From Frigidibacter oleivorans (GTDB lineage Bacteria; Pseudomonadota; Alphaproteobacteria; Rhodobacterales; Rhodobacteraceae): DNA of 64,000 bases. Below are positions 51,187-64,000 of the stretch, piece by piece. Where the stretch lies: positions 186,001 to 250,000 of the forward strand of contig NZ_RJRZ01000002.1 in assembly GCF_003993775.1 (NCBI RefSeq). The letters are read 5' to 3'. Each line of letters starts with the position of its first letter. Within the stretch, counting starts at the first letter, position 1. The position numbers and the translations under genes were made by a program. The notes below the pieces were generated by a model. It was not told the DNA's origin, made no database searches, and worked only from the letters and a program-made list of their open reading frames with translations.

Positions 51187-51271
51187 TGGTGCCCAGGAGA
51201 GGACTCGAACCTCCACGCCTTGCGGCACACGGACCTGAACCGTGCGCGTCTACCAATTCCGCCACCTGGGC
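51187..51271 (-). tRNA. tRNA-Leu (anticodon CAG)
   Basis: An 85-nt class II tRNA. The acceptor arms GCCCAGG and CCTGGGC pair fully; the D-arm has GGCGGAATTGGTAGAC; the anticodon stem CACGG/CCGTG encloses loop TTCAGGT with anticodon CAG at 51235-51237; a long variable arm and the GGTTCGAGTCC T-arm follow. The CCA end is encoded (TGG at 51187-51189 on the plus strand). It reads CUG codons, by far the commonest leucine codon in this window. Confidence 0.97.
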
Positions 51272-51290
51272 CGGTGCCGTGAAGGCGGTG

Positions 51291-51317
51291 TCTATAGCCG
51301 GTTCCGGGGGCTGTCAA
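51291..51317 (-). promoter_or_regulatory. Promoter of tRNA-Leu
   Basis: On the minus strand TTGACA (51317-51312), a 15-bp GC-rich spacer, then TATAGA (51296-51291). It lies about 20 bp ahead of the mature tRNA 5' end. The short spacer is unusual but the two boxes are near-consensus. Confidence 0.55.
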
Positions 51318-51499
51318 CGGCGGGGAACGGGTCGGCCTAGCGGGGACCGGTGCGGGCGTTGTCCTCGAGGTTCAACAGGCGGCAGCGGCGGGGGGTGCCG
51401 GCGGCGAGAGGTATTGGTGTTCAACAAAAATGGCACGTTTCTGCCTATTCGCACCAAAACTTACTATAGTATCCGCAGTGCCCGCACTTGACCCACAGA

Positions 51500-51514
51500 T
51501 ATTGTTGGACAATA
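51500..51514 (+). promoter_or_regulatory. Perfect GntR/FadR-type operator
   Basis: TATTGTTGGACAATA, a palindrome with 6-bp arms and a 3-bp centre. It fits the known FadR-subfamily consensus TNGTNNNACNA without mismatch. It sits 70-84 bp ahead of the kinase ATG and overlaps the spacer or -10 of a possible TTGACC promoter (51488). The operon encodes its own FCD-type GntR regulator (54066-54731), the natural candidate to bind here. Confidence 0.65.
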
Positions 51515-51583
51515 AAGGGTCGGCACGGTGCTCCCGCCTGCAACGCCGCGCGTTATCTCGACGCGCAAGATCCCGGGTGGAAG

Positions 51584-52657
51584 ATGGCCCACGATCGTCA
51601 GCTGAAGCCGGCCCGCGCCTCGGAGCTTTCGCAGGCGTGCCAGCGGGTGGGTGCGGCCGAAGCCGAGGACATCGCCGGACGCCTTTACGGCATGAGCGGT
51701 TCTGCTACCCGGTTCGAGACCGAGAAGGACGACACGTTCCTTCTCGACTGTGCGAATCGGGGCAAGTTCGTCCTGAAGATCGCCCATCCGTCCGAGCGGA
51801 TGGACGAACTCGATTTTCAGGTGGCGCTGTTGCGCCATGTCGAGAAGCGCGATCCCGGCCTTCCCGTCCCGCGCGCCCATGCCGACCTGGACGGGGTGGA
51901 TCTGCCCGTCGTCATGACCGGGGCCGGCGAGCGGCGCGCGGTCCGGCTCATCAGCTTTCTGTCCGGCACGCCGCTGGACCGGACGACCTCCACCGCGCCG
52001 CAGCGCGAACGGATCGGCGAGGTTCTGGCAGGGCTGCGTCATTCGATGGCGGACTTCTCTCATCCCGCCGACGGCCGGAGGCTGGCTTGGGATGTCACGC
52101 ATCTGCTCGATCTGTCGGACCTTCTGGACTTCGTTCCGGAGGGCAGCAAGCGGGCGTGGACGCTCCATGCGCTCGACCAGTTTGCCGGCATCAAGCCGCG
52201 GCTGGACCGGTGCCGGCGGCAGGTGCTTCACAACGATTTCAATACCTCCAACCTCGTCGTGGATCCCGCCGATCCCCGGTTCCTGACCGGCGTCATCGAC
52301 TTCGGCGATGCGGTCCGGACGGCCATCGCCGTCGATGTCTCGACGGCATTGATGAACCAGATGCCCAGGACTCTCGACGCCGGGAACCGGTCGGACCCGT
52401 TCGACGGGCCGCGCGACGTTCTGCGCGGCTATCTCCGCCATGCCGACCTGACCGCAGAGGAACTGCGCCTCATCCCCTTCCTCGCCCTCGGCAGGCTGGC
52501 GGTCCGCGCGCTGCTGACCTGCTGGCGCGCCACGCTGTTTCCGGAAAACAGCCGTTACATCCTGCGCCATACCGAAGCGGGCTGGGTGAATCTCGAATGG
52601 TTCAGCACGATGTCCACCGCCCAGATCGCCGACCTTCTGACCCGAGAGGAAACCTGA
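51584..52657 (+). CDS. APH-fold small-molecule kinase (hydroxylysine kinase-like)
   Basis: A 357-residue phosphotransferase of the aminoglycoside/choline kinase fold. The start at 51584 has GGTGGAAG before it. K65 in FVLKIAHPS fits the ATP lysine; the catalytic loop is VLHNDFNTSN (H216-N220) and the metal motif is IDFGDAV (D239, D242). The gene overlaps the next (PLP enzyme) by one base. This kinase plus AGXT2L-type lyase pairing is the known arrangement of hydroxylysine kinase (HYKK) with phosphohydroxylysine phospho-lyase in animals, and a fused or paired form in bacteria. I infer phosphorylation of a hydroxy-amine such as 5-hydroxylysine; an antibiotic substrate is less likely. Confidence 0.8.
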   Translation: MAHDRQLKPARASELSQACQRVGAAEAEDIAGRLYGMSGSATRFETEKDDTFLLDCANRGKFVLKIAHPSERMDELDFQVALLRHVEKRDPGLPVPRAHADLDGVDLPVVMTGAGERRAVRLISFLSGTPLDRTTSTAPQRERIGEVLAGLRHSMADFSHPADGRRLAWDVTHLLDLSDLLDFVPEGSKRAWTLHALDQFAGIKPRLDRCRRQVLHNDFNTSNLVVDPADPRFLTGVIDFGDAVRTAIAVDVSTALMNQMPRTLDAGNRSDPFDGPRDVLRGYLRHADLTAEELRLIPFLALGRLAVRALLTCWRATLFPENSRYILRHTEAGWVNLEWFSTMSTAQIADLLTREET

Positions 52658-54027
52658 TGTCCAAAGAGGCGACGACCCTGCCCAGGGGCTACCGCGGCGA
52701 CATGGCGAACGGCTTCAACCCGCAGGACGCGGCCCATCTTTCAGGCGAGGATGCGGCGCATGTGGAACGGCGGCAAAGGCTGCTCGGCCCCGCCTACCGG
52801 CTTTTCTACAAAACGCCGGTCGAGGTATCCCGCGCCAAAGGCGTCTACCTCTATGACAGGCACGGCACCGAATATCTCGATGCCTACAACAACGTGGTGT
52901 CGGTCGGTCACTCTCATCCGCGGGTCGTCGCGGCCATCCAGAAACAGCTGGAAGTTCTCTGCACCCATACCCGCTACATGCAGGAACCCCTGCTGGACTA
53001 TGCCGAGGCGCTGATCGGCACGTTCGGCGGCGAACTGGGCCGGACCGGATGCGCGATGTTCACCTGCACCGGGTCGGAAGCCAACGATCTGGCCCTGCGG
53101 ATCGCGCGATATCACACCGGCAAGACCGGCGTCATCGTCACCGCCGAGGCCTATCACGGCAACAGCGGCGCGGTGGCGGCGATCTCGCCCTCGCTGGGCA
53201 GGAAGTCGGCGCTCGATCCCTTTGTCCGGACGGTTGCCGCGCCCGATTCCTATCGGCTGCCGGTCGAGGAAATCGGCCGGAGGATGGCCGAGGATGTCGC
53301 CCGCCAGATCGCCGACATCGAACGGCATGGCGGCGGACTGGCGGCCTTCGTCGCCGACTCGGTCTTCTCGTCGGACGGGCTCTATGTCGATCCGACCGAC
53401 GTGCTGGGGCCCGTGGCGGACGTGGTGCGCAAGGCGGGGGGGCTGTTCATCGCCGACGAGGTGCAATCCGGCTTCGGACGGACCGGCACGCATCTGTGGG
53501 GACATGCCCGTCACGGGGTCGATCCCGATATCGTCACCCTCGGCAAGCCGATGGGCAACGGATACCCCGTCGCGGGTCTGGTGGTGCGGTCCGATCTCGT
53601 TGCCGAATTTGGCGCCAGCATGCGCTATTTCAACACGTTCGGGGGCAATTCCGTCGCCATTGCCGCGGCTCGGGCCGTGCTCGACACCATCCGCGACGAG
53701 GGCCTGATGGACAATGCCGTCACAGTCGGCGGCGACATCCTCTCCGGCCTGCGCGACCTTCAGGACAAGTACGACTTCGTGGGCGATGTGCGCGGCACCG
53801 GCCTTTATTTCGCGGTGGAGCTCGTCAAGGATCGCGACCGCAAGGTTCCCGACATGGACCGGGCGCTGGCGGCGGTGAACGCCCTGCGCGACCGGCGCAT
53901 CCTGATTTCCGCGACGGGGGCAGATGCCCATATCCTGAAGATCAGGCCCCCGCTGGTCTTCACCTCCTCCGACGCGGGCCGCCTGCTGGAAGGTGTGGAC
54001 GCGGCGCTGCGGGCGGTGCAGGGGTAG
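52657..54027 (+). CDS. PLP-dependent class III enzyme, phospho-lyase-like (AGXT2L type)
   Basis: A 456-residue fold-type I PLP enzyme. The cofactor lysine is K297 in TLGKPMGNGYP, D267 (FIADEVQ) contacts the pyridine nitrogen, and TGSEANDLALRIA is the phosphate cup. GHSHPRVVAAI, EYLDAYNNV and YFNTFGGN follow the ethanolamine-phosphate/5-phosphohydroxylysine phospho-lyase (ETNPPL/PHYKPL) pattern more than classic transaminases. Such enzymes remove ammonia and phosphate to leave an aldehyde. Translationally coupled to the kinase (TGATG), it is likely to act on the kinase product. Ordinary transaminase activity cannot be ruled out. Confidence 0.82.
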   Translation: MSKEATTLPRGYRGDMANGFNPQDAAHLSGEDAAHVERRQRLLGPAYRLFYKTPVEVSRAKGVYLYDRHGTEYLDAYNNVVSVGHSHPRVVAAIQKQLEVLCTHTRYMQEPLLDYAEALIGTFGGELGRTGCAMFTCTGSEANDLALRIARYHTGKTGVIVTAEAYHGNSGAVAAISPSLGRKSALDPFVRTVAAPDSYRLPVEEIGRRMAEDVARQIADIERHGGGLAAFVADSVFSSDGLYVDPTDVLGPVADVVRKAGGLFIADEVQSGFGRTGTHLWGHARHGVDPDIVTLGKPMGNGYPVAGLVVRSDLVAEFGASMRYFNTFGGNSVAIAAARAVLDTIRDEGLMDNAVTVGGDILSGLRDLQDKYDFVGDVRGTGLYFAVELVKDRDRKVPDMDRALAAVNALRDRRILISATGADAHILKIRPPLVFTSSDAGRLLEGVDAALRAVQG

Positions 54028-54065
54028 GCGCGACGCCGCAAGACGCTTCACCCACGGCCAAAGCC

Positions 54066-54731
54066 ATGACGCACGTTCAGGAACTTCCGTCCGGTTCCGG
54101 ACCCATCCCCGCCAGCGCGGTGGAGATCCTGACGCAGGACCTGCGGCGACGCATCCTGTCCGGCGATTTCAGGCCCGGCGAGTTCCTGCGCGACGTCAAG
54201 ATGTGCGAGGAGCATTCGACCTCGCGGCACACGTTCCGGACGGCGGCGCTTGTGCTCGTCACCCAGGGCCTGCTGCGCCAGATTCCGAACCGGGGCTTCA
54301 TGCTGCCCGAGTTCGGGCCTGACGACATCGTCGATATCACCCGCCTGCGCGGCGCCATCGAAGGCGAGGCCGTCCGAATGATCGTGCTGACCGGCGTGAT
54401 CCCGCCCGCCGCGCTGGACGCGGTCGCGGTCATGCGGGATCCGGCGCGGTCGGCCGACCGGTCGGCGCTGGTGACCGCCGACCGCGACTTTCACCGCGCG
54501 ATCATCGCCGCGAGCGGGAGCGCGCGGCTGAAGCGGACCTATTCCGGCCTCGAGGGCGAAATCGAGCTTCTGCTGATCCAGAGGCAGGGCTTCTATGCGG
54601 CGGCCGAGGACATGGCGCTGGAGCATGAGCGGCTGATCGACAGCCTGAAGAGCCGCCACTACGGCACCGCCCGCGATGCCTTTCAGGAGCACTGGGAAGA
54701 CCTTCAGACGCGATTGCTGGATCAGCGCTGA
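54066..54731 (+). CDS. GntR family regulator, FCD (FadR) type
   Basis: A 221-residue regulator. The N-terminal winged helix (about 15-85) shows LRRRILSGDFRPGEFLRDV and the recognition part STSRHTFRTAALVLVTQGLL; the helical FCD ligand domain runs from about 95 to 215 with the metal/ligand histidines in DRDFHRAIIAASGS and ALEHERLIDSL. It is the third gene of the kinase operon, 38 bp after the PLP enzyme. A perfect FadR-type operator precedes the operon, so autoregulation by a pathway substrate is likely. It converges with an FAD oxidoreductase gene. Confidence 0.9.
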   Translation: MTHVQELPSGSGPIPASAVEILTQDLRRRILSGDFRPGEFLRDVKMCEEHSTSRHTFRTAALVLVTQGLLRQIPNRGFMLPEFGPDDIVDITRLRGAIEGEAVRMIVLTGVIPPAALDAVAVMRDPARSADRSALVTADRDFHRAIIAASGSARLKRTYSGLEGEIELLLIQRQGFYAAAEDMALEHERLIDSLKSRHYGTARDAFQEHWEDLQTRLLDQR

Positions 54732-54752: not shown

Positions 54753-56066
54753 TCACCGCTGATCCCATCTGTCCAGCATGCCATAGTACCAGACCGCCAG
54801 AGGCAGGAACCACGGCTTGCCGTTGTAGAAGGGGCGCGACGGGAAAGCGAGGTCGCCATAGACCGTCCTGCCGTCGTCGTTGCCGAGCATCCGGTTCGCG
54901 ATGCGGCTGCCCAGCCAGCTGGCGCGCGCCACGCCCGTGCCGTTGTAGCCGCCGGCGAAATACACCCCGTCGATAGTATCCACATGCGGGAGATGGTCGA
55001 AGGTGAAGCCGAGCTGGCCGTGCCAGTAATGGCTGATCTTGTAGGCGGCGAGTTCCGGAAAGATCCTCAGCAGAAGGCTGCGGATATAGGTGGCATTGGC
55101 GACGTTGCTTCTGTCCGTCCCGCTCATGTCGAGCACGCGCCCGCCCAGGATGATGCGCTTTCCGTCCGGCGAGGGACGATAGTAGGTCACCACGCGCTGG
55201 CTGCCGGCCAGCATCTGCTGTTTCGGCATCAGCCTGTTCATGAGCTCGGGCGGCAGCTCCTCGGTGGCGACGAGGCCGCTTCCGACCGGGATGATGCGCC
55301 GCTTCAGATAGGGCAGCAGCGCGCCGCTGTATCCGTTGGTCGCGATCAGGACCTGCCGCGCCCTGACGTCGCGGCCCTGCACCTTGAAGGCGAAGGTGCC
55401 GTCCGCCTGACGAAGATCGGTGACCCGTGCCTGGCCGAAGACCCGGGCGCCCAGTCGCCGGGCCGCTTCGGCGAGGCCCCGGACGTATTTCGCCGGGTGG
55501 ATGCCGGCATAGCCGGGCATCGCGACCCCGCCGTGATAGAGATCCGAGCCCACTTCCTTGTGCTGTTCGGACCGGGGGACCATGTAGGCGTCGCAGGGCA
55601 TCACCTTGCTGATGCGGTCGATGTTCCTGCCCAGGCTGTCATAGATGCGCGGGGTCATCGCCCCCTTGAAGTAACCGACAACCTTCAGGTCGCAGTCGAT
55701 CCCTTCCCGTGCAACCACGTCCTTGACGTGTTGCAGGGACTCGAAGCTTTCTTCCACGACGCGGCGCGCCACGTCCTCGCCATGCTGCATGGCCGTATCG
55801 AAGAAGGCCCAGCCGGGCCCAAGGAACCCGCCATTGCGCGACGAGGCGCCCCAGCCCGGCGCATCGGCGTCGAAGACGCTGACCTGCTTGCCGGCCCTTG
55901 CCAGGACAATCGCCGCGTTGAGGCCGGTGAAGCCCCCCCCGATGATCGCCACCTCGGTGGTGGAGGGGATGTCGTCGGCATTGGTCCCGTTCGGGCGGGC
56001 CGCATCCCACCAGAACGGGGTGGCGACGGCATCATCGGCGAAGAAGGGGGCGTTCAGACCGGACAT
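54753..56066 (-). CDS. FAD-dependent amine/amino-acid oxidoreductase (DAO family, PuuB-like)
   Basis: A flavoprotein of about 437 residues that oxidises an amine or amino acid. The dinucleotide-binding motif is VAIIGGGFTGLNAAIVLARAG (in parts, IIGGGFTGLNAA), followed by GWGASSRNGGFLGPG, and the C-terminal FAVGGYNGTGVARA-type end reads FAGGYNGTGVARA. The pattern is that of gamma-glutamylputrescine oxidase relatives. The ATG at 56066 gives the family N-terminus; an ATG at 56129 is possible, and neither has a clear ribosome site. Substrate unknown. A structured gap (56067-56290) separates it from the aldehyde dehydrogenase gene. Confidence 0.85.
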   Translation of the reverse strand: MSGLNAPFFADDAVATPFWWDAARPNGTNADDIPSTTEVAIIGGGFTGLNAAIVLARAGKQVSVFDADAPGWGASSRNGGFLGPGWAFFDTAMQHGEDVARRVVEESFESLQHVKDVVAREGIDCDLKVVGYFKGAMTPRIYDSLGRNIDRISKVMPCDAYMVPRSEQHKEVGSDLYHGGVAMPGYAGIHPAKYVRGLAEAARRLGARVFGQARVTDLRQADGTFAFKVQGRDVRARQVLIATNGYSGALLPYLKRRIIPVGSGLVATEELPPELMNRLMPKQQMLAGSQRVVTYYRPSPDGKRIILGGRVLDMSGTDRSNVANATYIRSLLLRIFPELAAYKISHYWHGQLGFTFDHLPHVDTIDGVYFAGGYNGTGVARASWLGSRIANRMLGNDDGRTVYGDLAFPSRPFYNGKPWFLPLAVWYYGMLDRWDQR

Positions 56067-56290
56067 GGACGTGGCTCGCGTTTGCGGGTTGGAGGTAGGC
56101 GCATCGGGTTTTCCAGCAGGGTTCCCCATCGACTGCCGTCATGCCCTACAGGGGACTGCGGATCGGGAAACGTTTGCTGTCGGATGCCGCGGCTGCGCGA
56201 AACAAAATAGCGTTGTTCGCCGGGCGTGGCGCATAACCTGCGGGCCGCGGCCGGCCTGTCGGCCAGCCGTCCCGCAGGCCGCCCGCACGA
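56067..56290. other. 224-bp structured gap upstream of the DAO gene
   Basis: Holds a stem CCTGCGGG/CCCGCAGG (56237-56244 with 56271-56278) enclosing GGCCG/CGGCC, just after the aldehyde dehydrogenase stop on the minus strand, without a T-tract, and an AT-richer patch near 56195-56220 (CGAAACAAAATAGCGTTG) that may be the promoter or operator of the DAO gene. No gene seen. Confidence 0.4.
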
Positions 56291-57730
56291 CTACAGTCCT
56301 CCGAAATGGAAGGCCTTGGTTTCCAGATACTCCTCGATCCCCTCCTCGGCGCCTTCGCGGCCGAGGCCGGACGCCTTGACGCCGCCGAAGGGGGAGACCT
56401 CGTTGCTGATCAGCCCGGTGTTGAGGCCGACCATTCCGAATTCCAGCGCCTCGCCGAAGCGGAAGGCGCGGGCCATGTCGCGGGTGTAGAAATAGGCCGC
56501 CAGTCCGAAGGGCGTGCCATTCGCCAGTGTCAGCGCCTCATCCTCGGTCTCGAACCGGAAGATCGGTGCGACGGGGCCGAAGGTTTCCTCCGTCGCCAGC
56601 CGCATCGCGCCGCTGGCGCCCGACAGCACCACGGGATCGGCGAAGTTTCCCGGCAGGTTGCGGGTCCGTGTGACCCGGGTCGCGCCCTTGTCCAGCGCAT
56701 CCGCCACATGCGCGCCGATCTTGTCCATGGCGGCCGCGTTGATCATCGGTCCGATGTCCACCCCCGCCTCTGTTCCCGGGCCGACCTTCAACGCATCGAC
56801 ACGCTGCGCCAGCGCGTCGACAAAGGCATCATGGATGCCCGACTGCACCATGATCCGGTTGGCGCAGACGCAGGTCTGCCCGCCGTTGCGGAACTTGGAC
56901 TGCATCGCGCCTTCGACCGCGGCGTCGAGATCGGCGTCGTCGAAGACCACGAAGGGTGCGTTGCCGCCCAGTTCCAGGCTCAGGCGTTTCAGGGTCGGCG
57001 CACATTGTTCGGCCAGAAACGCGCCCACCCGGGTGGAGCCGGTGAAGGACAGCTTGCGCACGACCGGGCTCGCGGTCAGCGTCGCGCCGATCGCCTCGGG
57101 CTTGCCGGTCAGGATGTTCAGCACGCCCGCAGGGATGCCCGCCCTTTCGGCCAGGACGGCCAGCGCCAGCGCCGAATAGGGGGTGAAGTCCGACGGTTTC
57201 ACCACCATCGTGCAGCCCGCCGCCAGCCCCGGCGCGACCTTGCGCGTGATCATGGCGATGGGGAAGTTCCACGGCGTGATGATCGCGCAGACGCCGACCG
57301 GCTCTTTCATGGCAAGGATCTTCTTGCCCGCCACGGGCGAGGGGATGATCTTGCCGTTGATGCGCCGCGCCTCTTCGGCGAACCAGCGCACGAAACTGGC
57401 GCCATAGGCCACTTCGGCGCGCGCTTCCGACATGGGTTTGCCCTGCTCGGCGGTCAGGATGCGCGCCAGATCCTCGGAATTGTCCAGCATCAGCTGATAC
57501 CACCGCATCAGCATGTCGGCGCGCTGCGCATGGGTCCGGGCCCGCCAACCGACCATGGCGCGCGCCGCCGCGTCGATGGCGGTGGCGGTTTCCTCTGCGG
57601 TGCAGTCGGGCAGCATCCCCAGCGTGTCGCCCGTCGCCGGATCGGTGACCGGCATGTCGGCGCGCGCCAGCCACTCGCCGTCGATCAGGGCGGCGTTTCG
57701 GAACAGGTCGGGATCGTGCAGCTTCATCAT
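56291..57730 (-). CDS. NAD(P)-dependent aldehyde dehydrogenase (succinate-semialdehyde type)
   Basis: Oxidises an aldehyde to its acid. The 479-residue product has the cofactor region ITPWNFPIAMITRKVAPGLA, the base E253 in LELGGNAPF and the nucleophile C287 in GGQTCVCAN, and it follows the GabD-like succinate-semialdehyde pattern. Related enzymes take glutarate or aminoadipate semialdehydes too, which would fit amine or hydroxylysine breakdown. It overlaps the dehydrogenase gene upstream by 4 bp (ATGA). Confidence 0.92.
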   Translation of the reverse strand: MMKLHDPDLFRNAALIDGEWLARADMPVTDPATGDTLGMLPDCTAEETATAIDAAARAMVGWRARTHAQRADMLMRWYQLMLDNSEDLARILTAEQGKPMSEARAEVAYGASFVRWFAEEARRINGKIIPSPVAGKKILAMKEPVGVCAIITPWNFPIAMITRKVAPGLAAGCTMVVKPSDFTPYSALALAVLAERAGIPAGVLNILTGKPEAIGATLTASPVVRKLSFTGSTRVGAFLAEQCAPTLKRLSLELGGNAPFVVFDDADLDAAVEGAMQSKFRNGGQTCVCANRIMVQSGIHDAFVDALAQRVDALKVGPGTEAGVDIGPMINAAAMDKIGAHVADALDKGATRVTRTRNLPGNFADPVVLSGASGAMRLATEETFGPVAPIFRFETEDEALTLANGTPFGLAAYFYTRDMARAFRFGEALEFGMVGLNTGLISNEVSPFGGVKASGLGREGAEEGIEEYLETKAFHFGGL

Positions 57731-58776
57731 TGCGCCTCCAGCGCGGCGAGGATCGCCGCCGTGATCTCATCGGTGGTGTTGCGCCCCTGCGAGGTGCCGA
57801 TGCCCCGGGCCGTCGTCGCGTTGACGGCCTCCATGACGGCGCCGGCGGCCGCGGCTTCGCCGAGATGGTCGAGCATCATCGCCGCCGACCAGATGGCGGC
57901 GATCGGATTCGCGACATTGCGCCCGGCGATGTCGGGCGCCGAGCCATGCACCGGTTCGAACATCGAGGGGGCGGACCGGTCCGGGCAGATATTGGCCGAG
58001 GCGGCAAAGCCGAGACCGCCCTGAATCGCGGCGCCGAGGTCGGTGAGAATGTCGCCGAACAGGTTCGAGGCCACGACCACATCGAGGCTGTCGGGCGCCA
58101 TCACCATCCGCGCCGCCATCGCGTCGATATGGATCTGCGAGACGCGGACATCGGGGTAGTCGGCGGCGACAAGGCGGGTCACCTCGTCCCAGAACACCAT
58201 CGAATGTCGCTGGGCGTTGGATTTGGTGACCGAGGTGACGTGCCCCCGGCGCGCCCGTGCCTGATCGAAGGCAAAGCGCAGGATGCGTTCCACCCCGGTA
58301 CGGGTAAAGATCGACGTCTCGATCGCCACTTCGTCGGCGGTGCCCTGATGCACGCGGCCTCCGGCGCCGGAATATTCGCCTTCGGTATTCTCGCGGATGC
58401 AGAGGATGTCGAAGGCAGAGGTTTTCAGCGGCGCGTCGACCCCCGGCAGAGGCCGGTGCGGACGGATATTGGCATATTGGTTGAAGCTCTTGCGGATCGG
58501 CAGCAACAGCCCGTGCAGCGAGACGGAATCCGGCACGGTTTCCGGCCAGCCGACCGCGCCCAGCAGGATGGCGTCGAAGCTGCGCAGGGTGTCGATGCCG
58601 TCCGGGGGCATCATCGCCCCGGTTTCGAGATAGTAGGCGCAGGACCAGGGAAAGCCCTGCGTCGCGACCCCGAAGCCGAAGCGGCCTGCGACCGCGTGCA
58701 GGACCGCCAGCGCGGCGTCCGTGACATCCACGCCGATCCCGTCACCGGGGATCACGGCCAGCTTGTGCGTCCTCAT
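57727..58776 (-). CDS. Tartrate dehydrogenase/isopropylmalate dehydrogenase-family enzyme
   Basis: A 349-residue NAD-dependent beta-decarboxylating dehydrogenase. Landmarks are VIPGDGIGVDVTDAAL, RENTEGEYSGAGGRVHQGT, VTKSNAQRHSM and EPVHGSAPDIAG. The pattern agrees with the tartrate dehydrogenase/decarboxylase (TtuC-like) group, which acts on tartrate, malate and related 2-hydroxy acids. The start at 58776 has AAGGAGA. It is coupled to the aldehyde dehydrogenase gene. The natural substrate in this cluster is uncertain. Confidence 0.87.
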   Translation of the reverse strand: MRTHKLAVIPGDGIGVDVTDAALAVLHAVAGRFGFGVATQGFPWSCAYYLETGAMMPPDGIDTLRSFDAILLGAVGWPETVPDSVSLHGLLLPIRKSFNQYANIRPHRPLPGVDAPLKTSAFDILCIRENTEGEYSGAGGRVHQGTADEVAIETSIFTRTGVERILRFAFDQARARRGHVTSVTKSNAQRHSMVFWDEVTRLVAADYPDVRVSQIHIDAMAARMVMAPDSLDVVVASNLFGDILTDLGAAIQGGLGFAASANICPDRSAPSMFEPVHGSAPDIAGRNVANPIAAIWSAAMMLDHLGEAAAAGAVMEAVNATTARGIGTSQGRNTTDEITAAILAALEAQ

Positions 58777-58915: not shown

Positions 58916-60241
58916 CTAGAAGTCGGACACCTTGCCCCATTGGCTGAGGCCGAAACGGGCCAGCCGGTAGTGTTTCGTGTCGGCGATGGGGCGGCGGCCC
59001 AGGACCAGGTCGGCGACCAGATGGCCGACGCCCGGACCGATGCCGAAGCCATGGCCCGACAGGCCGGCGGCCAGCACCAGCCCGGGGATCCCGATATCGG
59101 CGTCGATCACCGGAACGCCATCCGGCGTGCTGTCGATATAGCCGGCCCAGGTGGCCTGCACCGGCAGGTGCCGCAGGTCCGGCACCAGAGCCCGCGCCTT
59201 GGCCAGCGTCTCGGCAATGATCCTTGCCGAGGGGCGCGGATCGAGGATGCGCGTCCGCTCCATCGGCGTGGGCCGGTCCAGCGCCCAGCGGGCGCGGGTC
59301 TCGAAGCCGGCGTTCCAGGCCTGCAGGCCGCCGGGCCGCAGCGAGCGCCACCTGCGGGCGAACATCGGCAGGAAATGCCGGATGCCGGCAATCGCGCCCT
59401 GCGTCGGATCGAGGCAGGCCCGGCCCGAGATCGCCAGCATATACCCGCCGTCGCCGCGCCGGGTGACGGCCACGCCGCCCGAGACGAGCGCGGGGGGCAG
59501 GCCCTTCGCCCCCGGCGCGACCGACAGGACCGAGCTGCGGACGGAGGCCTGCGGAAAGGCGATGCCGAGCTGGTTCACGAAACTTCCGGCCCAGGCCCCG
59601 CCCGCGACCACGACGGCGGAGGTCCGGATGGTGCCTCGTTCGGTGATCACGGCGGCGACGCGCCCCGCGGCAAGTTCCACCCCGCGCGCGGCGCAGTTCT
59701 GCACGACATGGCCGCCATGCACCTCGACCCCGCGGGCGATCATCGGCGCGGCGCGGGACGGGTCCGCTGTCCCGTCCGACGGCGACCAGACCCCGCCGGC
59801 CCAGCGTTGGCCCGTCGCGGCGCCCCGTTCCGTGGCCTCGGCGGCGGTCAGCATGTGCGTCTCGACGCCCGCGCCCCGCGCAAAGCGGCCCCAGTTTGCC
59901 CAGCCCTCGATCTCTGCGGGCGAATTCGACAGGTACAGCAGCCCGCAGCGGGAGAAGCCGAGGCTGTCGCCGATATCCTCCGCCATCCGTTCCCACAGAT
60001 CGAGGCTCCGCGTCGCCAGCGCCAGTTCGCGCGCGTCGCGGTTCTGCTGACGGCACCAGCCCCAGTTCCGGCTGGACTGCTCGGCCCCGACCAGGCCCTT
60101 TTCCAGCAGGACCACCTTCTGCCCGGCGGAGGCCAGCCAGTAGGCCGCCGACACGCCCACGATCCCGCCCCCGATCACCACGCAATCTGCCGAGGGGGGA
60201 AGGTGGTTCGAGGTCGCGACCTCTAGCAGTGGGGCCGGCAT
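58916..60241 (-). CDS. FAD-dependent amino-acid oxidase-like protein (DAO family)
   Basis: A second DAO-type flavoenzyme, 441 residues. The start at 60241 has AGGAGATT; a much longer open frame upstream is an artefact that crosses the lrp gene. The FAD motif is CVVIGGGIVGVSAAYWLASAG (seen as VVIGGGIVGVSAAYW), then EKGLVGAEQSSRNWGWCRQQ; the C-terminal end carries GLSGHGFGIGPGVG. The pattern fits D-amino-acid dehydrogenase or sarcosine/imino-acid oxidase relatives. It is divergent from the Lrp gene, which probably controls it, and precedes the ttuC-like gene by 139 bp. Confidence 0.87.
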   Translation of the reverse strand: MPAPLLEVATSNHLPPSADCVVIGGGIVGVSAAYWLASAGQKVVLLEKGLVGAEQSSRNWGWCRQQNRDARELALATRSLDLWERMAEDIGDSLGFSRCGLLYLSNSPAEIEGWANWGRFARGAGVETHMLTAAEATERGAATGQRWAGGVWSPSDGTADPSRAAPMIARGVEVHGGHVVQNCAARGVELAAGRVAAVITERGTIRTSAVVVAGGAWAGSFVNQLGIAFPQASVRSSVLSVAPGAKGLPPALVSGGVAVTRRGDGGYMLAISGRACLDPTQGAIAGIRHFLPMFARRWRSLRPGGLQAWNAGFETRARWALDRPTPMERTRILDPRPSARIIAETLAKARALVPDLRHLPVQATWAGYIDSTPDGVPVIDADIGIPGLVLAAGLSGHGFGIGPGVGHLVADLVLGRRPIADTKHYRLARFGLSQWGKVSDF

Positions 60242-60315: not shown

Positions 60316-60326
60316 GCATTTTATGC
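60316..60326. promoter_or_regulatory. Candidate Lrp operator in the DAO-lrp divergent gap
   Basis: GCATTTTATGC, an 11-bp palindrome (4-bp arms, TTT centre), followed by CTGAATGC. It lies in the 174-bp gap between the two divergent genes, where a local Lrp-type regulator would be expected to bind. Weak evidence by itself. Confidence 0.3.
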
Positions 60327-60415
60327 TGAATGCGGAAGGCTTTCGATTGTTGCGCGGAAGAGGGTTGCGGTACGCTGACAGAGGCACGCGACAGCACGCT
60401 GTGAGGGACATGACC

Positions 60416-60910
60416 ATGACAGGTCACTACAGGCTCGACCGGATTGATGTGAAGATTCTGGCGGTCCTGCAGCGCAACGGCCGCATCACCAATGTCGAGC
60501 TTGCCGACGAGGTGAACCTCTCGCCCTCGCCCTGCCTGATGCGGGTGAAGAAGCTGCAGCAGGCGGGATATATCACCGGCTATTCGGCCCAGATCGACCT
60601 GTCGAAACTGGGCGAGACCCTGACCGTCTTCACCGAGTTCACCCTGAAGAACCATCGCCAGATCGACTTCGCCCGTTTCCAGGAGGCGCTGGAGAAGGTC
60701 GAGAGCTGCGTCGAGTGCCACCTCGTCTCTGGCGGGTACGACTACCTCGCGAAATTCGTGACCTCCGGCATCTCCGCCTATCAGTCGATGGTCGAGGGAC
60801 TGATCGACCGCAATCTCGGGATCGACAAGTATTTCAGCTTCGTGGTGCTGAAGACCCCATTCGTGAAACAGCAGATCCCGCTGGCCCGTCTGTTCGACGA
60901 GCGGGACTAG
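60416..60910 (+). CDS. Lrp/AsnC family transcriptional regulator
   Basis: A 164-residue regulator of amino-acid metabolism. The helix-turn-helix (RLDRIDVKILAVLQRNGRIT, LADEVNLSPSPCLMRVKKL) is followed by the RAM ligand domain (FTEFTLKNHRQ, CHLVSGGYDYLAKF). I chose 60416 because GAGGGA is 7 bp ahead; an ATG at 60410 is in frame but only one base from that site. It is divergent from the DAO gene and convergent with the hydroxyacid dehydrogenase gene. Lrp-type local regulators commonly sense the amino acid broken down by the neighbouring genes. Confidence 0.92.
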   Translation: MTGHYRLDRIDVKILAVLQRNGRITNVELADEVNLSPSPCLMRVKKLQQAGYITGYSAQIDLSKLGETLTVFTEFTLKNHRQIDFARFQEALEKVESCVECHLVSGGYDYLAKFVTSGISAYQSMVEGLIDRNLGIDKYFSFVVLKTPFVKQQIPLARLFDERD

Positions 60911-60993: not shown

Positions 60994-61905
60994 TCAATAG
61001 CCCCGTTCCCGATCCACACGTCCCGGAACCGCGTGGCCGGCGCGCAGGGCCCGGATCACGGCCAGCGCGTGCTGCGCGCCTTCGACCGGGTTGGTCTGGG
61101 CCGCGACATGCGGGGTCACGATGACCCGAGGGTCCGACCAGAGCCAGTGATCCGCCGGCAAGGGTTCGGGGTCGGTGACATCCAGCACCGCGCCGGACAG
61201 CTGGCCGCCGTCCAGCGCCTCGCGCAGGTCCGTCATGCGCAGGTGACCGCCGCGCCCGGCATGGATCAGGCCCGCCCCACGGGGAAGCATCGCGAAGGTC
61301 CGGGCGCCGAGGATGCCCCTGGTTTCCTCGGTAAGGGGCAGGAGGCAGACCAGCAGATCGCTGCGGGCGAGGAAGGCTTCGGTCTCGCTGGCCCGGAAGA
61401 GCGTGCTGCCCGGCCCCCCGGCGCCCGATCGCGACTGGCCCGCGACGTCGAACCCGAGGGTCGTCAGGCTGTCGGCCACCAGCCTGCCGATCCGCCCCAT
61501 CCCCAAAATGCCGATCCGCCGGGACGCCGCCTCGCGCACCGGCCGGGCCTTCCAGAGGCCCTGCCGGGCCTGCTGCAGATAGGCCGGCAGGTCGCGATGC
61601 AGCATCAGCACGGCCATCATCACCCAGTCCCGCACCATCGCGTCGATGCCGGCGGACAGGGTGCGGGACAGCACGACCCCGGGCGGCAGGGGCGGCAGGT
61701 GATCGACCCCCGCGCCGACCGAGATGACGGCACGCAGGTTGGGATAGCGCCCCAGATCGGCCGGCGGGGTCCAGCAGGCAATTTCGGTGATGGCGGCGGG
61801 ATCGGTGACGGCCGCCTCGCCGTCGACCATCTCTTCGCCGGCCTCGGTCAGGATACGATGCCAGACCGGCGCCCGTTCGCGGGTTGACAGAAACAGCAGC
61901 GCCAT
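60994..61905 (-). CDS. D-2-hydroxyacid dehydrogenase (GhrA-like glyoxylate/hydroxypyruvate reductase)
   Basis: A 303-residue NAD(P)-dependent enzyme that reduces glyoxylate, hydroxypyruvate or a similar 2-oxo acid. The nucleotide loop is IGILGMGRIGRLVADSL near 140-155, and the catalytic His lies in VTPHVAAQTNP. The arrangement without the long substrate-domain loops fits GhrA. The ATG at 61905 overlaps the aminotransferase stop by one base (TGATG), so the two are coupled; it may use the oxo acid made by that enzyme. Confidence 0.88.
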   Translation of the reverse strand: MALLFLSTRERAPVWHRILTEAGEEMVDGEAAVTDPAAITEIACWTPPADLGRYPNLRAVISVGAGVDHLPPLPPGVVLSRTLSAGIDAMVRDWVMMAVLMLHRDLPAYLQQARQGLWKARPVREAASRRIGILGMGRIGRLVADSLTTLGFDVAGQSRSGAGGPGSTLFRASETEAFLARSDLLVCLLPLTEETRGILGARTFAMLPRGAGLIHAGRGGHLRMTDLREALDGGQLSGAVLDVTDPEPLPADHWLWSDPRVIVTPHVAAQTNPVEGAQHALAVIRALRAGHAVPGRVDRERGY

Positions 61906-63293
61906 CAGCCCAGTACCGCCCGGATTTCGGGATCCTGCAGGGTCAGGTCCAGGACCTTGGCGGTGCGTTCGACGATGGCGTCGATCTCGTCCGCCGTGCA
62001 GCACAGGGGCGGGGCATAGCCGAACACGCCCTGTGCGAAGGACCGGATGATCAGCCCCTGATCCCAGGCCCGGTCGAACAGCCGGGTTGCCGGATCAAGT
62101 TCCGCGGGCAGCGGTGTCTTCGCCGCCTTGTCGCTGACCAGTTCGACAGCGGCCAGCATGCCGCGCCCCCGGACATCCCCGACCAGCGGATGATCGGCCA
62201 GCCCGCGCAGACCGGCCTGGAGCCGCTCGCCCATGCGGCGGCCGTTGTCCAGAAGGCCGCCTTCGTACAGCGCCAGCACCTCCAGCGCCACGGCGGCCGA
62301 GACGGGATGCGCCGAATAGGTGAAGCCGTGGCCGACGGCCCTGGCACCGGCGCCTTCGGCAATGGTCTCGTAGACCTCGTCCGACATCAGGACGGCGCCC
62401 ATCGGCAGGTAGCCCGAGGTCAGGCCCTTGGCGACCGTCATCAGGTCGGGCACGATCCCCTCGTCCTCGCAGGCGAACAGCGGGCCGGTGCGACCGAAGG
62501 CGGTGATCACCTCGTCGGCGACGAACAGGATGCCCAGCTCGGTGCAGGTGTCGCGCATCGCCTTGACCCAGCCCGGCGGAGGCACCAGCACCCCGCCCGA
62601 TCCTTGGATCGGCTCCAGATAGAAGGCCGCGACGCGGTCGGCGCCGATGGCCGCCACCTTGGCCCGCAGTTCGGCGACCGAGGCGTCGATCACGGCCCGG
62701 GGATCGGTGGCCAGGGGGTTGCGGTACAGCGCATGCGACGAAATCTTGTGCTGCCAGTCATGCGGGATGCCGAACCCCTCATGGAACAGCGGCAGCGCCG
62801 TCAGCCCGGCGCCCATGCTGGTCGAGCCGTGATAGCCCGATGCCACCGAGATGAACTGGTCGCGCGCCGGCTGTCCCCTCGAATGCCAGTAATAGCGGAT
62901 GAAGCGGATCGTGCTGTCCACGGCATCCGATCCGCCCAGGGTGAAATAGACATGGTTCAGGTCGCCCGGCGCCCGCTCGGCCAGGGCCGCGGCAAGGCGA
63001 ATGGGGGCCTCGGCGCCAAGGTCGAAATAGCCCGTCGCATAGGGCAGTTCGCGCATCTGGCGCATGGCGGCCTCGACCACGCTGTCCTGCCCGTATCCCG
63101 CATTGACGCACCAGAGACCCGCGAAGCCGTCGATCAGCTGGCGGCCGGTGGAGTCGGTGACCGTTGCCCCTTGGGCCGAGACGATCAGCCGGACCCCGCG
63201 CGCCTCGTGGCCCCGGAAGGACGAGACGGGATGCACCAGATGCCGGCGATCCAGTTCGACCAGCGAGTTCGCGAGGATCTTCCCGGTAAACAT
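61905..63293 (-). CDS. Class III (omega-amino acid/diamine) aminotransferase
   Basis: A 462-residue PLP enzyme of the group that uses pyruvate as amino acceptor and amines such as putrescine or beta-alanine as donors. The cofactor lysine is K289 in TVAKGLTSGYLP, D260 (LFVADEVITAFGRTG) holds the pyridine nitrogen, and TLGGSDAVDS forms the phosphate cup. The N-terminal HLVHPVSSFRGHEARG and GLWCVNAGYG are typical of diamine/pyruvate transaminases such as SpuC. The ribosome site is GAAGGGAG. The donor cannot be read from sequence. Confidence 0.9.
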   Translation of the reverse strand: MFTGKILANSLVELDRRHLVHPVSSFRGHEARGVRLIVSAQGATVTDSTGRQLIDGFAGLWCVNAGYGQDSVVEAAMRQMRELPYATGYFDLGAEAPIRLAAALAERAPGDLNHVYFTLGGSDAVDSTIRFIRYYWHSRGQPARDQFISVASGYHGSTSMGAGLTALPLFHEGFGIPHDWQHKISSHALYRNPLATDPRAVIDASVAELRAKVAAIGADRVAAFYLEPIQGSGGVLVPPPGWVKAMRDTCTELGILFVADEVITAFGRTGPLFACEDEGIVPDLMTVAKGLTSGYLPMGAVLMSDEVYETIAEGAGARAVGHGFTYSAHPVSAAVALEVLALYEGGLLDNGRRMGERLQAGLRGLADHPLVGDVRGRGMLAAVELVSDKAAKTPLPAELDPATRLFDRAWDQGLIIRSFAQGVFGYAPPLCCTADEIDAIVERTAKVLDLTLQDPEIRAVLG

Positions 63294-63450: not shown

Positions 63451-64000
63451 TCAGCCAAGCAATCGCTGCCCAAGCCGGCGGATCAGCGCGCAGCAGGAGT
63501 CGAGTTCGCCGGTCGTCAGATATTCCTCGGGCTTGTGGGCGCGGTCGATCGCGCCCGGTCCGCAGATCACCGCAGGAACCCCCGCCGCCTGAAAAAGCCC
63601 GGCCTCGGTGCCGTAGCTGACGGCTGCCAGGGGGGCCTTGCCCGACAGATCCTCGATCAGCGCGGCCAGGGGATGATCGGGGTCCAGCGCCAGCGCCGGA
63701 TAGCTGGACAGGGTCTCGACCGCGACCCCGGCGGTGCGCGCTGCCTCCGTCACCGGTGCCAGAAGGTCCCTCGGCTCGACGCCGGCGATGGCGCGGGCCT
63801 CGAGTTCGGCCTCGGCGCGGTCCGGAATGATGTTCAGCGCCAGACCGCCCGAGATCGTCCCGATCTGCAGGCTGGACCAGGGCGGCGCGAAGCGCGCGTC
63901 CTGCGGCCCGGACCGCAGCACGGCCGCCTGCGCGACGGCCGCGTCGAGAACGGGCACGAGGGCGTGGATCGCATTCGACCCGAGATCGGGACGGGAGGAA
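63451..64000 (-). CDS. ArgE-like M20 deacetylase (5' part beyond the window)
   Basis: The C-terminal 183 or so residues of a zinc-dependent M20 amidohydrolase. The visible frame runs through the window edge (NAIHALVPVLDA before the first internal GTG), so the start lies outside. The dimerisation domain (TISGGLALNIIPDRAEAELE, 20 residues) and the C-terminal catalytic part (VSYGTEAGLFQAAGVPAVICG and the metal-ligand CGPGAIDRAHKPEEY) follow the acetylornithine deacetylase pattern. Since ArgJ already recycles acetyl groups in arginine synthesis here, this enzyme more likely removes an acyl group from a catabolic substrate of the accessory cluster. Confidence 0.87.
   Translation of the reverse strand, partial: SSRPDLGSNAIHALVPVLDAAVAQAAVLRSGPQDARFAPPWSSLQIGTISGGLALNIIPDRAEAELEARAIAGVEPRDLLAPVTEAARTAGVAVETLSSYPALALDPDHPLAALIEDLSGKAPLAAVSYGTEAGLFQAAGVPAVICGPGAIDRAHKPEEYLTTGELDSCCALIRRLGQRLLG

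What the first reader, a model, noticed from the sequence alone, without database searches (positions are those of the whole stretch)
51500..54731. Kinase plus phospho-lyase operon: possible bacterial 5-hydroxylysine (or similar) pathway
An APH-fold kinase and an AGXT2L-type PLP enzyme are translationally coupled. In animals hydroxylysine kinase and phosphohydroxylysine phospho-lyase are partner enzymes of the same two families. The product would be an aldehyde (2-aminoadipate 6-semialdehyde if hydroxylysine), and an aldehyde dehydrogenase, DAO enzymes and another aminotransferase lie in the next 9 kb. This is the best candidate in the window for a poorly described catabolic route.
Basis: partly seen in the sequence, partly recalled or inferred. 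Interest (0 to 1): 0.62.

Follow-up and report, generated by a model that had tools for sequence, protein, structure and literature searches.

The report
Kinase–phospho-lyase pair in azetidine-type catabolic island
A small-molecule kinase and a phosphate-eliminating vitamin-B6 enzyme, made as a coupled pair, open a 31-kb acquired DNA island that probably lets the bacterium eat a plant amino acid with a four-membered ring rather than hydroxylysine; the pathway appears undescribed, but its substrate is unproven.

Summary
Kinase (51584-52657) and PLP enzyme (52657-54027) overlap at TGATG and are followed by their own GntR regulator. The PLP enzyme is an ETNPPL/A1RDF1-type phospho-lyase, not a transaminase. 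Three additions change the interpretation. (1) The pair is the first operon of a 30.8-kb genomic island flanked by 136-bp direct repeats carrying tRNA-Leu(CAG); same-genus relatives have the empty site. (2) In 42 of 43 loci with this lyase subtype (Rhizobiales, Pseudomonas, Paraburkholderia) an HAD gene lies nearby (0 of 36 other kinase-lyase loci); its closest solved relative is L-azetidine-2-carboxylate hydrolase. It also lies on the window's island, just past the window end. (3) A palindrome TTGTNNNACAA lies about 80 bp upstream of the kinase in 40 of 43 loci and occurs once in the 64-kb window. Succinate-semialdehyde-type and tartrate/D-malate dehydrogenases recur too, pointing to a C4 amino-hydroxy acid, best guess 4-amino-2,3-dihydroxybutanoate from a hydroxylated azetidine-2-carboxylate, degraded through malate semialdehyde. 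Human ETNPPL groups elsewhere in the lyase tree; nothing found supports hydroxylysine. Caveat: nine HAD loci found independently lack the pair, so it is an add-on. The chemistry is inferred with good confidence; the substrate is not.

The parts
51187..51322 (.). left 136-bp direct repeat holding tRNA-Leu(CAG) (51187-51271, minus strand); left end of the genomic island
   Evidence: 134/136 identical to the right copy at 82079-82214 (beyond the window); same-genus relatives have one copy and no island
51502..51512 (.). palindromic operator TTGTTGGACAA (TTGTNNNACAA), probable GntR site
   Evidence: only exact site in 64 kb (expected 0.05); same motif 63-91 bp upstream of the kinase in 40 of 43 related loci
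51584..52657 (+). APH-fold small-molecule kinase
   Evidence: Pfam APH; AlphaFold model pLDDT 89, best PDB homoserine kinase 2PPQ Z 27.9, aminopropanol kinase 6EF6 Z 24.6; catalytic residues invariant
52657..54027 (+). ETNPPL/A1RDF1-type PLP phospho-lyase, TGATG overlap with the kinase
   Evidence: best PDB 6TOR (E 3e-96) and 5G4I (7e-96), next 8e-51; model best matches 6TOR Z 36.1 and 5G4I Z 35.6; tree
54066..54731 (+). GntR/FCD transcriptional regulator
   Evidence: Pfam GntR + FCD; homologue in 42 of 43 lyase-clade loci, 0 of 36 others
54753..56129 (-). DAO-type FAD amine oxidase/dehydrogenase (AmaA/aminophosphonate-oxidase-like)
   Evidence: Pfam DAO, NCBIfam partial hits
56291..57730 (-). 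succinate-semialdehyde-dehydrogenase family ALDH
   Evidence: TIGR01780 661.7 bits, above cut-off 646
57727..58776 (-). tartrate/D-malate dehydrogenase (TTC), overlaps the ALDH start by 4 bp
   Evidence: TIGR02089 552.7 bits, above cut-off 470
58916..60241 (-). second DAO-type FAD enzyme (L-amino-acid deaminase/sarcosine oxidase-like)
60323..60910 (+). Lrp/AsnC regulator
   Evidence: recurs in related clusters
60994..61905 (-). GhrA-like D-2-hydroxyacid dehydrogenase
61905..63293 (-). class III terminal-amine aminotransferase (PRK05965)
   Evidence: 810 bits, above cut-off 729; PDB polyamine/omega transaminases
63451..64000 (-). ArgE-like deacylase, continues to 64587 beyond the window; then (window numbering) cupin 64584-64961, HAD hydrolase 65157-65825, DAO 66088-67332, EitA-like FecCD ABC 67383-70230, OCD 70332-71264, GNAT 71478-72344, Opp/NikA-like ABC 72692-77995, DSD1/BhcC-like 78070-79248, ALDH 79308-80762, GNAT 80800-81699, right repeat 82079-82214

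Best explanation
A kinase-activated elimination step. The kinase phosphorylates the hydroxyl of a primary amino alcohol (X-CHOH-CH2-NH2). The lyase removes phosphate and ammonia, giving the aldehyde X-CH2-CHO. The pair is regulated by its own GntR at TTGTNNNACAA and belongs to a horizontally acquired island for breaking down an azetidine-2-carboxylate-type (nicotianamine/mugineic-acid-like) compound. Most likely substrate: 4-amino-2,3-dihydroxybutanoate, formed when the island's HAD enzyme opens a 3-hydroxyazetidine-2-carboxylate ring. The lyase would give 2-hydroxy-4-oxobutanoate (malate semialdehyde), the SSADH-type enzyme malate, and the tartrate/D-malate dehydrogenase pyruvate plus CO2. 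Shown here: gene order, families, coupling, operator, island, and co-occurrence with the HAD. Inferred from family chemistry: kinase and lyase reactions, and that the palindrome is the GntR site. Guessed: the identity of X and the parent compound. The confidence refers to the pair handling a C4 amino-hydroxy acid linked to the HAD; the specific dihydroxy substrate alone is about 0.25.
For: Lyase sequence is closest to phospho-lyases 6TOR and 5G4I, well ahead of transaminases; its model ranks them first too. HAD within 8 kb in 42/43 loci of the lyase clade, 0/12 sister and 0/24 control kinase-lyase loci, in two arrangements: divergent in Rhizobiales, downstream in Pseudomonas. A distant second kinase and lyase also stand beside an HAD of the same family in 6 rhizobial loci. 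HAD profile: AC hydrolase 3SMV/8YWO/9V14 103 bits, dehalogenase 58, epoxide hydrolases 52. AC hydrolase gives 2-hydroxy-4-aminobutyrate (PMC8016842). TTC (16/43) and SSADH (14/43) recur, 0/36 in controls. GNAT recurs (23/43); an acetyltransferase helps detoxify AC in fungi (PMC8016842). The island sits at an empty-site locus between direct repeats; Aminobacter plasmid pAA02 carries similar proteins for 15 of the 19 island proteins compared.
Against: Nine HAD genes found without regard to the kinase have no kinase-lyase nearby, so the HAD product is normally handled otherwise and the pair is an add-on. The island HAD is only distantly similar to AC hydrolase. SSADH and TTC lie within 8 kb in only about a third of loci, and several Pseudomonas loci hold little more than GntR-kinase-lyase-HAD. 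No exact or one-mismatch operator lies near the HAD in this genome. 3-Hydroxyazetidine-2-carboxylate is known to me only from grass hydroxymugineic acids, while many carriers are rhizobia. No paper found describes such a pathway.
Confidence: 0.42

Rival explanations
1. Bacterial 5-hydroxylysine pathway: kinase makes 5-phosphohydroxylysine, lyase makes 2-aminoadipate 6-semialdehyde.
For: Same two protein families as animal HYKK/PHYKPL (family knowledge); an ALDH lies nearby.
Against: Lyase clade is separate from human ETNPPL; ALDH is SSADH-type and linked to TTC; no aminoadipate gene recognised in the annotated neighbourhoods; constant partner is an AC-hydrolase-like HAD.
Confidence: 0.07
2. 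The pair acts on 2,4-diamino-3-hydroxybutanoate (from mugineic acid or hydroxyectoine), giving aspartate semialdehyde.
For: Vicinal terminal amino alcohol; EutB, OCD (BhcD-like), threonine aldolase and BhcC-like genes recur; some rhizobial copies lie near homoserine/aspartate-semialdehyde genes.
Against: Does not explain the constant HAD or TTC; no ectoine hydrolase or deacetylase genes seen nearby; ALDH is SSADH-type.
Confidence: 0.13
3. The pair acts directly on 4-amino-2-hydroxybutyrate, the known AC hydrolase product: kinase phosphorylates the 2-OH and the lyase performs a 1,3-elimination to succinic semialdehyde.
For: Minimal Pseudomonas operons hold only GntR-kinase-lyase-HAD, some with a DAO; SSADH family; kinase fold closest to homoserine kinase, whose substrate is the amino/hydroxyl-swapped isomer.
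Against: Known members of this lyase family eliminate from the neighbouring carbon; a 1,3-elimination would be new chemistry. TTC would be unexplained.
Confidence: 0.12
4. Simple amino-alcohol scavenging (ethanolamine or 1-amino-2-propanol), like A1RDF1 or the microcompartment aminopropanol kinase.
For: Closest solved lyases include human phosphoethanolamine phospho-lyase; 6EF6 aminopropanol kinase is among the best kinase matches.
Against: The genome has a second kinase-lyase pair elsewhere (L104); C4-acid enzymes and HAD recur with this one; no shell genes seen.
Confidence: 0.1
5. The PLP protein is an ordinary class III transaminase and the kinase is unrelated.
For: Database annotation names such as aspartate aminotransferase family protein.
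Against: Tree, PDB ranking, structural ranking, translational coupling and conserved pairing.
Confidence: 0.03

Closest known systems
Human ETNPPL (6TOR) and Paenarthrobacter A1RDF1 (5G4I) phospho-lyases
   Same: class III fold; 38% identity over about 380 aligned residues each; PLP lysine and active-site motifs conserved
   Different: separate branches of the tree; ETNPPL acts on phosphoethanolamine; no HAD or GntR partner known to me
Animal HYKK + PHYKPL hydroxylysine pathway
   Same: same pairing of an APH-fold kinase and an AGXT2L-type phospho-lyase (from family knowledge)
   Different: genomic context points to C4 hydroxy-acids; lyase does not group with the animal branch represented by ETNPPL
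Bacterial microcompartment aminopropanol kinase (6EF6) system
   Same: bacterial APH-fold amino-alcohol kinase, structural Z 24.6
   Different: no shell genes seen; different partners and regulator
L-azetidine-2-carboxylate hydrolase (Pseudomonas A2C; fungal AzhA)
   Same: an HAD type II relative is the near-constant genomic partner of this pair
   Different: kinase-lyase not described with it in the papers found; cluster HAD is a distant homologue
Beta-hydroxyaspartate enzymes BhcC/BhcD and ectoine EutB/EutC
   Same: distant homologues sit on the same island or in related clusters
   Different: island homologues score far below the equivalog cut-offs

Membership tests
ETNPPL/A1RDF1-type phospho-lyase | closer to phospho-lyases than to class III transaminases | tested here: met
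   E 3e-96 and 7e-96 versus 8e-51; 58-row lyase set separated from three aminotransferases with 100 support
ETNPPL/A1RDF1-type phospho-lyase | PLP-binding lysine and aspartate | tested here: met
   K297 and D267 invariant
ETNPPL/A1RDF1-type phospho-lyase | releases phosphate and ammonia from a phosphorylated amino alcohol | not testable with these tools
   needs enzyme assay
Hydroxylysine pathway (HYKK/PHYKPL) | lyase groups with the animal PHYKPL/ETNPPL branch | tested here: not met
   ETNPPL groups with bacterial fusions, the window lyase in another supported clade; PHYKPL itself not available
Hydroxylysine pathway (HYKK/PHYKPL) | kinase orthologous to HYKK | not tested
   no HYKK sequence in the tools
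Hydroxylysine pathway (HYKK/PHYKPL) | aminoadipate-semialdehyde oxidation encoded nearby | tested here: inconclusive
   nearby ALDH is assigned to succinate-semialdehyde dehydrogenase; aldehyde specificity cannot be read from sequence
APH-fold small-molecule kinase | fold and catalytic residues | tested here: met
L-azetidine-2-carboxylate hydrolase (island HAD) | closest to AC hydrolase among solved HAD type II enzymes | tested here: met
   103 bits versus 58 for dehalogenase and 52 for epoxide hydrolase (8HP5, an entry named haloacid dehalogenase and itself close to 3SMV, ties at 106)
L-azetidine-2-carboxylate hydrolase (island HAD) | orthology and ring-opening activity | not testable with these tools
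   distant similarity only; assay needed
Genomic island at a tRNA gene | direct repeats and empty site in relatives | tested here: met
   136-bp repeats with tRNA-Leu; rnd and epimerase genes about 400 bp apart in G001, G002 and G004 versus 31 kb here
Genomic island at a tRNA gene | integrase on the island | tested here: inconclusive
   none recognised by eye among predicted genes; no family search was made for one

The most novel reading that the evidence does not exclude
The island encodes the first recognised bacterial pathway for nicotianamine/mugineic-acid-type plant metallophores. FAD enzymes would cut the secondary amines, the HAD would open (3-hydroxy)azetidine-2-carboxylate, and a dedicated kinase/phospho-lyase would clear the hydroxylated ring product. 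The coupled pair would then be a phospho-lyase of new specificity.
Probability: 0.2. Interest if true: 0.78.

Novelty: new variant of a known kind. Interest (0 to 1): 0.55.

Why it matters
Phospho-lyases of this type have been characterised for very few substrates. This subtype has its own regulator, a conserved operator and a near-constant HAD partner, so a catabolic function can be tested directly in well-studied rhizobia and pseudomonads. If the azetidine/phytosiderophore reading is right, it would explain how soil and leaf bacteria dispose of plant metal chelators and a toxic proline analogue, which bears on iron nutrition of crops. Even if only the kinase-lyase chemistry is right, it extends the known substrates of the family and warns against annotating such proteins as aspartate aminotransferases.

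Tried and rejected
Ectoine/hydroxyectoine cluster: EutB/EutC-like genes occur near some rhizobial copies, but no ectoine hydrolase or deacetylase was seen beside them. Homoserine catabolism: homoserine genes lie further along in some rhizobia, but not in the window island or the Pseudomonas loci. GABOB or hydroxyarginine routes: ureohydrolase and AruI-like genes appear only in other subclades or scattered loci. HAD as true haloacid dehalogenase or cis-epoxysuccinate hydrolase: lower scores than AC hydrolase, not excluded. GNAT as Mpr1 homologue: no PDB match at all, so no support. Literature searches for A1RDF1, aminopropanol phospho-lyase, hydroxyarginine, nicotianamine or mugineic-acid degradation gave nothing on point. 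The 2012 paper that identified HYKK/PHYKPL is not held. The lyase model is of moderate confidence (pLDDT 71), so pocket residues were not interpreted. HYKK itself did not appear in the structural list, but absence there says nothing.
Full report
Observation. The kinase (51584-52657) and the PLP enzyme (52657-54027) are real, adjacent and coupled through TGATG. Pfam gives APH and Aminotran_3. A GntR/FCD regulator follows at 54066-54731.

What the two proteins are. The PLP enzyme matches human ETNPPL (6TOR) and the Arthrobacter phospho-lyase A1RDF1 (5G4I) at E about 1e-95, against about 1e-50 for the next families. Its model ranks the same two structures first at 38% identity, though the Z margin over transaminases is small (36.1 and 35.6 versus 34.7) and model confidence is moderate. 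In the tree it falls in a supported proteobacterial clade; ETNPPL groups with APH-peptidase-aminotransferase fusions. The kinase model is confident (pLDDT 89) and closest to homoserine kinase (Z 27.9), with the microcompartment aminopropanol kinase 6EF6 at Z 24.6. Catalytic residues of both are conserved.

A genomic island. In same-genus genomes G001, G002 and G004 the rnd gene and an epimerase gene are about 400 bp apart with one tRNA-Leu(CAG). Here they are 31 kb apart with two. The two copies sit in 136-bp direct repeats, 134/136 identical (51187-51322 and 82079-82214 in window numbering). The island therefore runs from about 51323 to 82078; the kinase is its first gene and 18 kb lie beyond the window. 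The lyase is 89% identical to Mesorhizobium and Devosia proteins. Among 61 relatives searched, the next best lyase was 65% identical and came from another family. Both facts agree with acquisition. The Aminobacter plasmid pAA02 carries similar proteins for 15 of the 19 compared, some at modest identity.

The HAD partner. Just past the window (65157-65825) lies an HAD type II enzyme. A profile of its family scores 103 bits against L-azetidine-2-carboxylate hydrolase (3SMV and siblings), 106 against 8HP5 (an entry named haloacid dehalogenase that is itself close to 3SMV), 58 against another haloacid dehalogenase and 52 against epoxide hydrolases. This HAD lies within 8 kb of the pair in 42 of 43 loci whose lyase is at least 66% identical to the window's, in none of 12 more distant kinase-lyase loci and in none of 24 control loci. 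The loci were found by kinase similarity and many are related rhizobia, so the p-value (9e-22) overstates independence; but they span Rhizobiales, Pseudomonas and Paraburkholderia, with different gene order. A second, distant kinase-lyase pair in six rhizobial loci also has an HAD of the same family beside it. In the window genome the HAD is 11 kb from the lyase, on the same island.

The operator. TTGTNNNACAA lies 63-91 bp upstream of the kinase in 40 of 43 loci and in the window (51502-51512), where it is the only exact site in 64 kb (0.05 expected). In most Rhizobiales loci a second copy lies between the kinase and the divergent HAD gene; in Pseudomonas it lies between the kinase and divergent gntR. 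No site lies near the HAD in this genome. That GntR binds it is inferred from its position and its absence where gntR is absent.

Pathway logic. The TTC tartrate/D-malate dehydrogenase and the SSADH-type ALDH overlap by 4 bp in the window, pass their NCBIfam cut-offs and recur in 16/43 and 14/43 loci against 0/36. For SSADH to feed TTC the aldehyde should be malate semialdehyde. The amino alcohol that a 1,2-phospho-lyase would turn into it is 4-amino-2,3-dihydroxybutanoate, which is also what AC-hydrolase chemistry would make from 3-hydroxyazetidine-2-carboxylate. The plain AC product, 2-hydroxy-4-aminobutyrate (PMC8016842), could reach the same aldehyde through the class III aminotransferase. 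Importers of EitA and Opp/NikA/CntA type and several FAD amine enzymes would suit nicotianamine or mugineic-acid-like parents. This last part is inference.

What weakens it. An HAD-first survey of 385 alphaproteobacterial genomes found the subfamily in ten. The nine besides this genome have no kinase-lyase nearby; most have a FAD amine enzyme or a GNAT near the HAD, and some have SSADH and TTC. The pair is therefore an add-on to an HAD module, and its substrate need not be the HAD product. No enzyme activity, expression or growth was tested.

Verdict. Real, ETNPPL-type, coupled, probably regulated by its own GntR, and mobile; not ordinary transamination; hydroxylysine is not supported. Most likely a C4 amino-hydroxy acid step in an azetidine-type catabolic island, with the substrate open.

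Noticed in passing
window 51187-51322 and 82079-82214 (beyond window): 136-bp direct repeats holding tRNA-Leu(CAG) bound a 30.8-kb island; relatives show the empty site.
   Followed up: yes
G000:C11 (L104:5276-10460): A second kinase-lyase pair in the same genome, with an ALDH, an HAD-IA protein and an SDR in one apparent operon; substrate unknown.
   Followed up: partly
L010-L019, L115-L124: In several relatives another kinase-lyase pair sits beside an ArfB-like gene and a nudix gene, a conserved context unlike a catabolic cluster.
   Followed up: no
L032, L038, L044, L053, L054, L063: A second HAD-kinase-lyase triple with distant kinase and lyase lies in the same rhizobial clusters.
   Followed up: partly
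L069, L072, L074, L075: Roseobacter-type loci pair the kinase-lyase with an agmatinase-family ureohydrolase, suggesting a guanidino precursor for that subclade.
   Followed up: no
L142-L150: HAD genes of this subfamily without kinase-lyase lie near a FAD amine enzyme or a GNAT: a possible core azetidine module.
   Followed up: partly
(plasmid collection): 39 Klebsiella plasmids carry a distant homologue of this kinase; context not examined.
   Followed up: no
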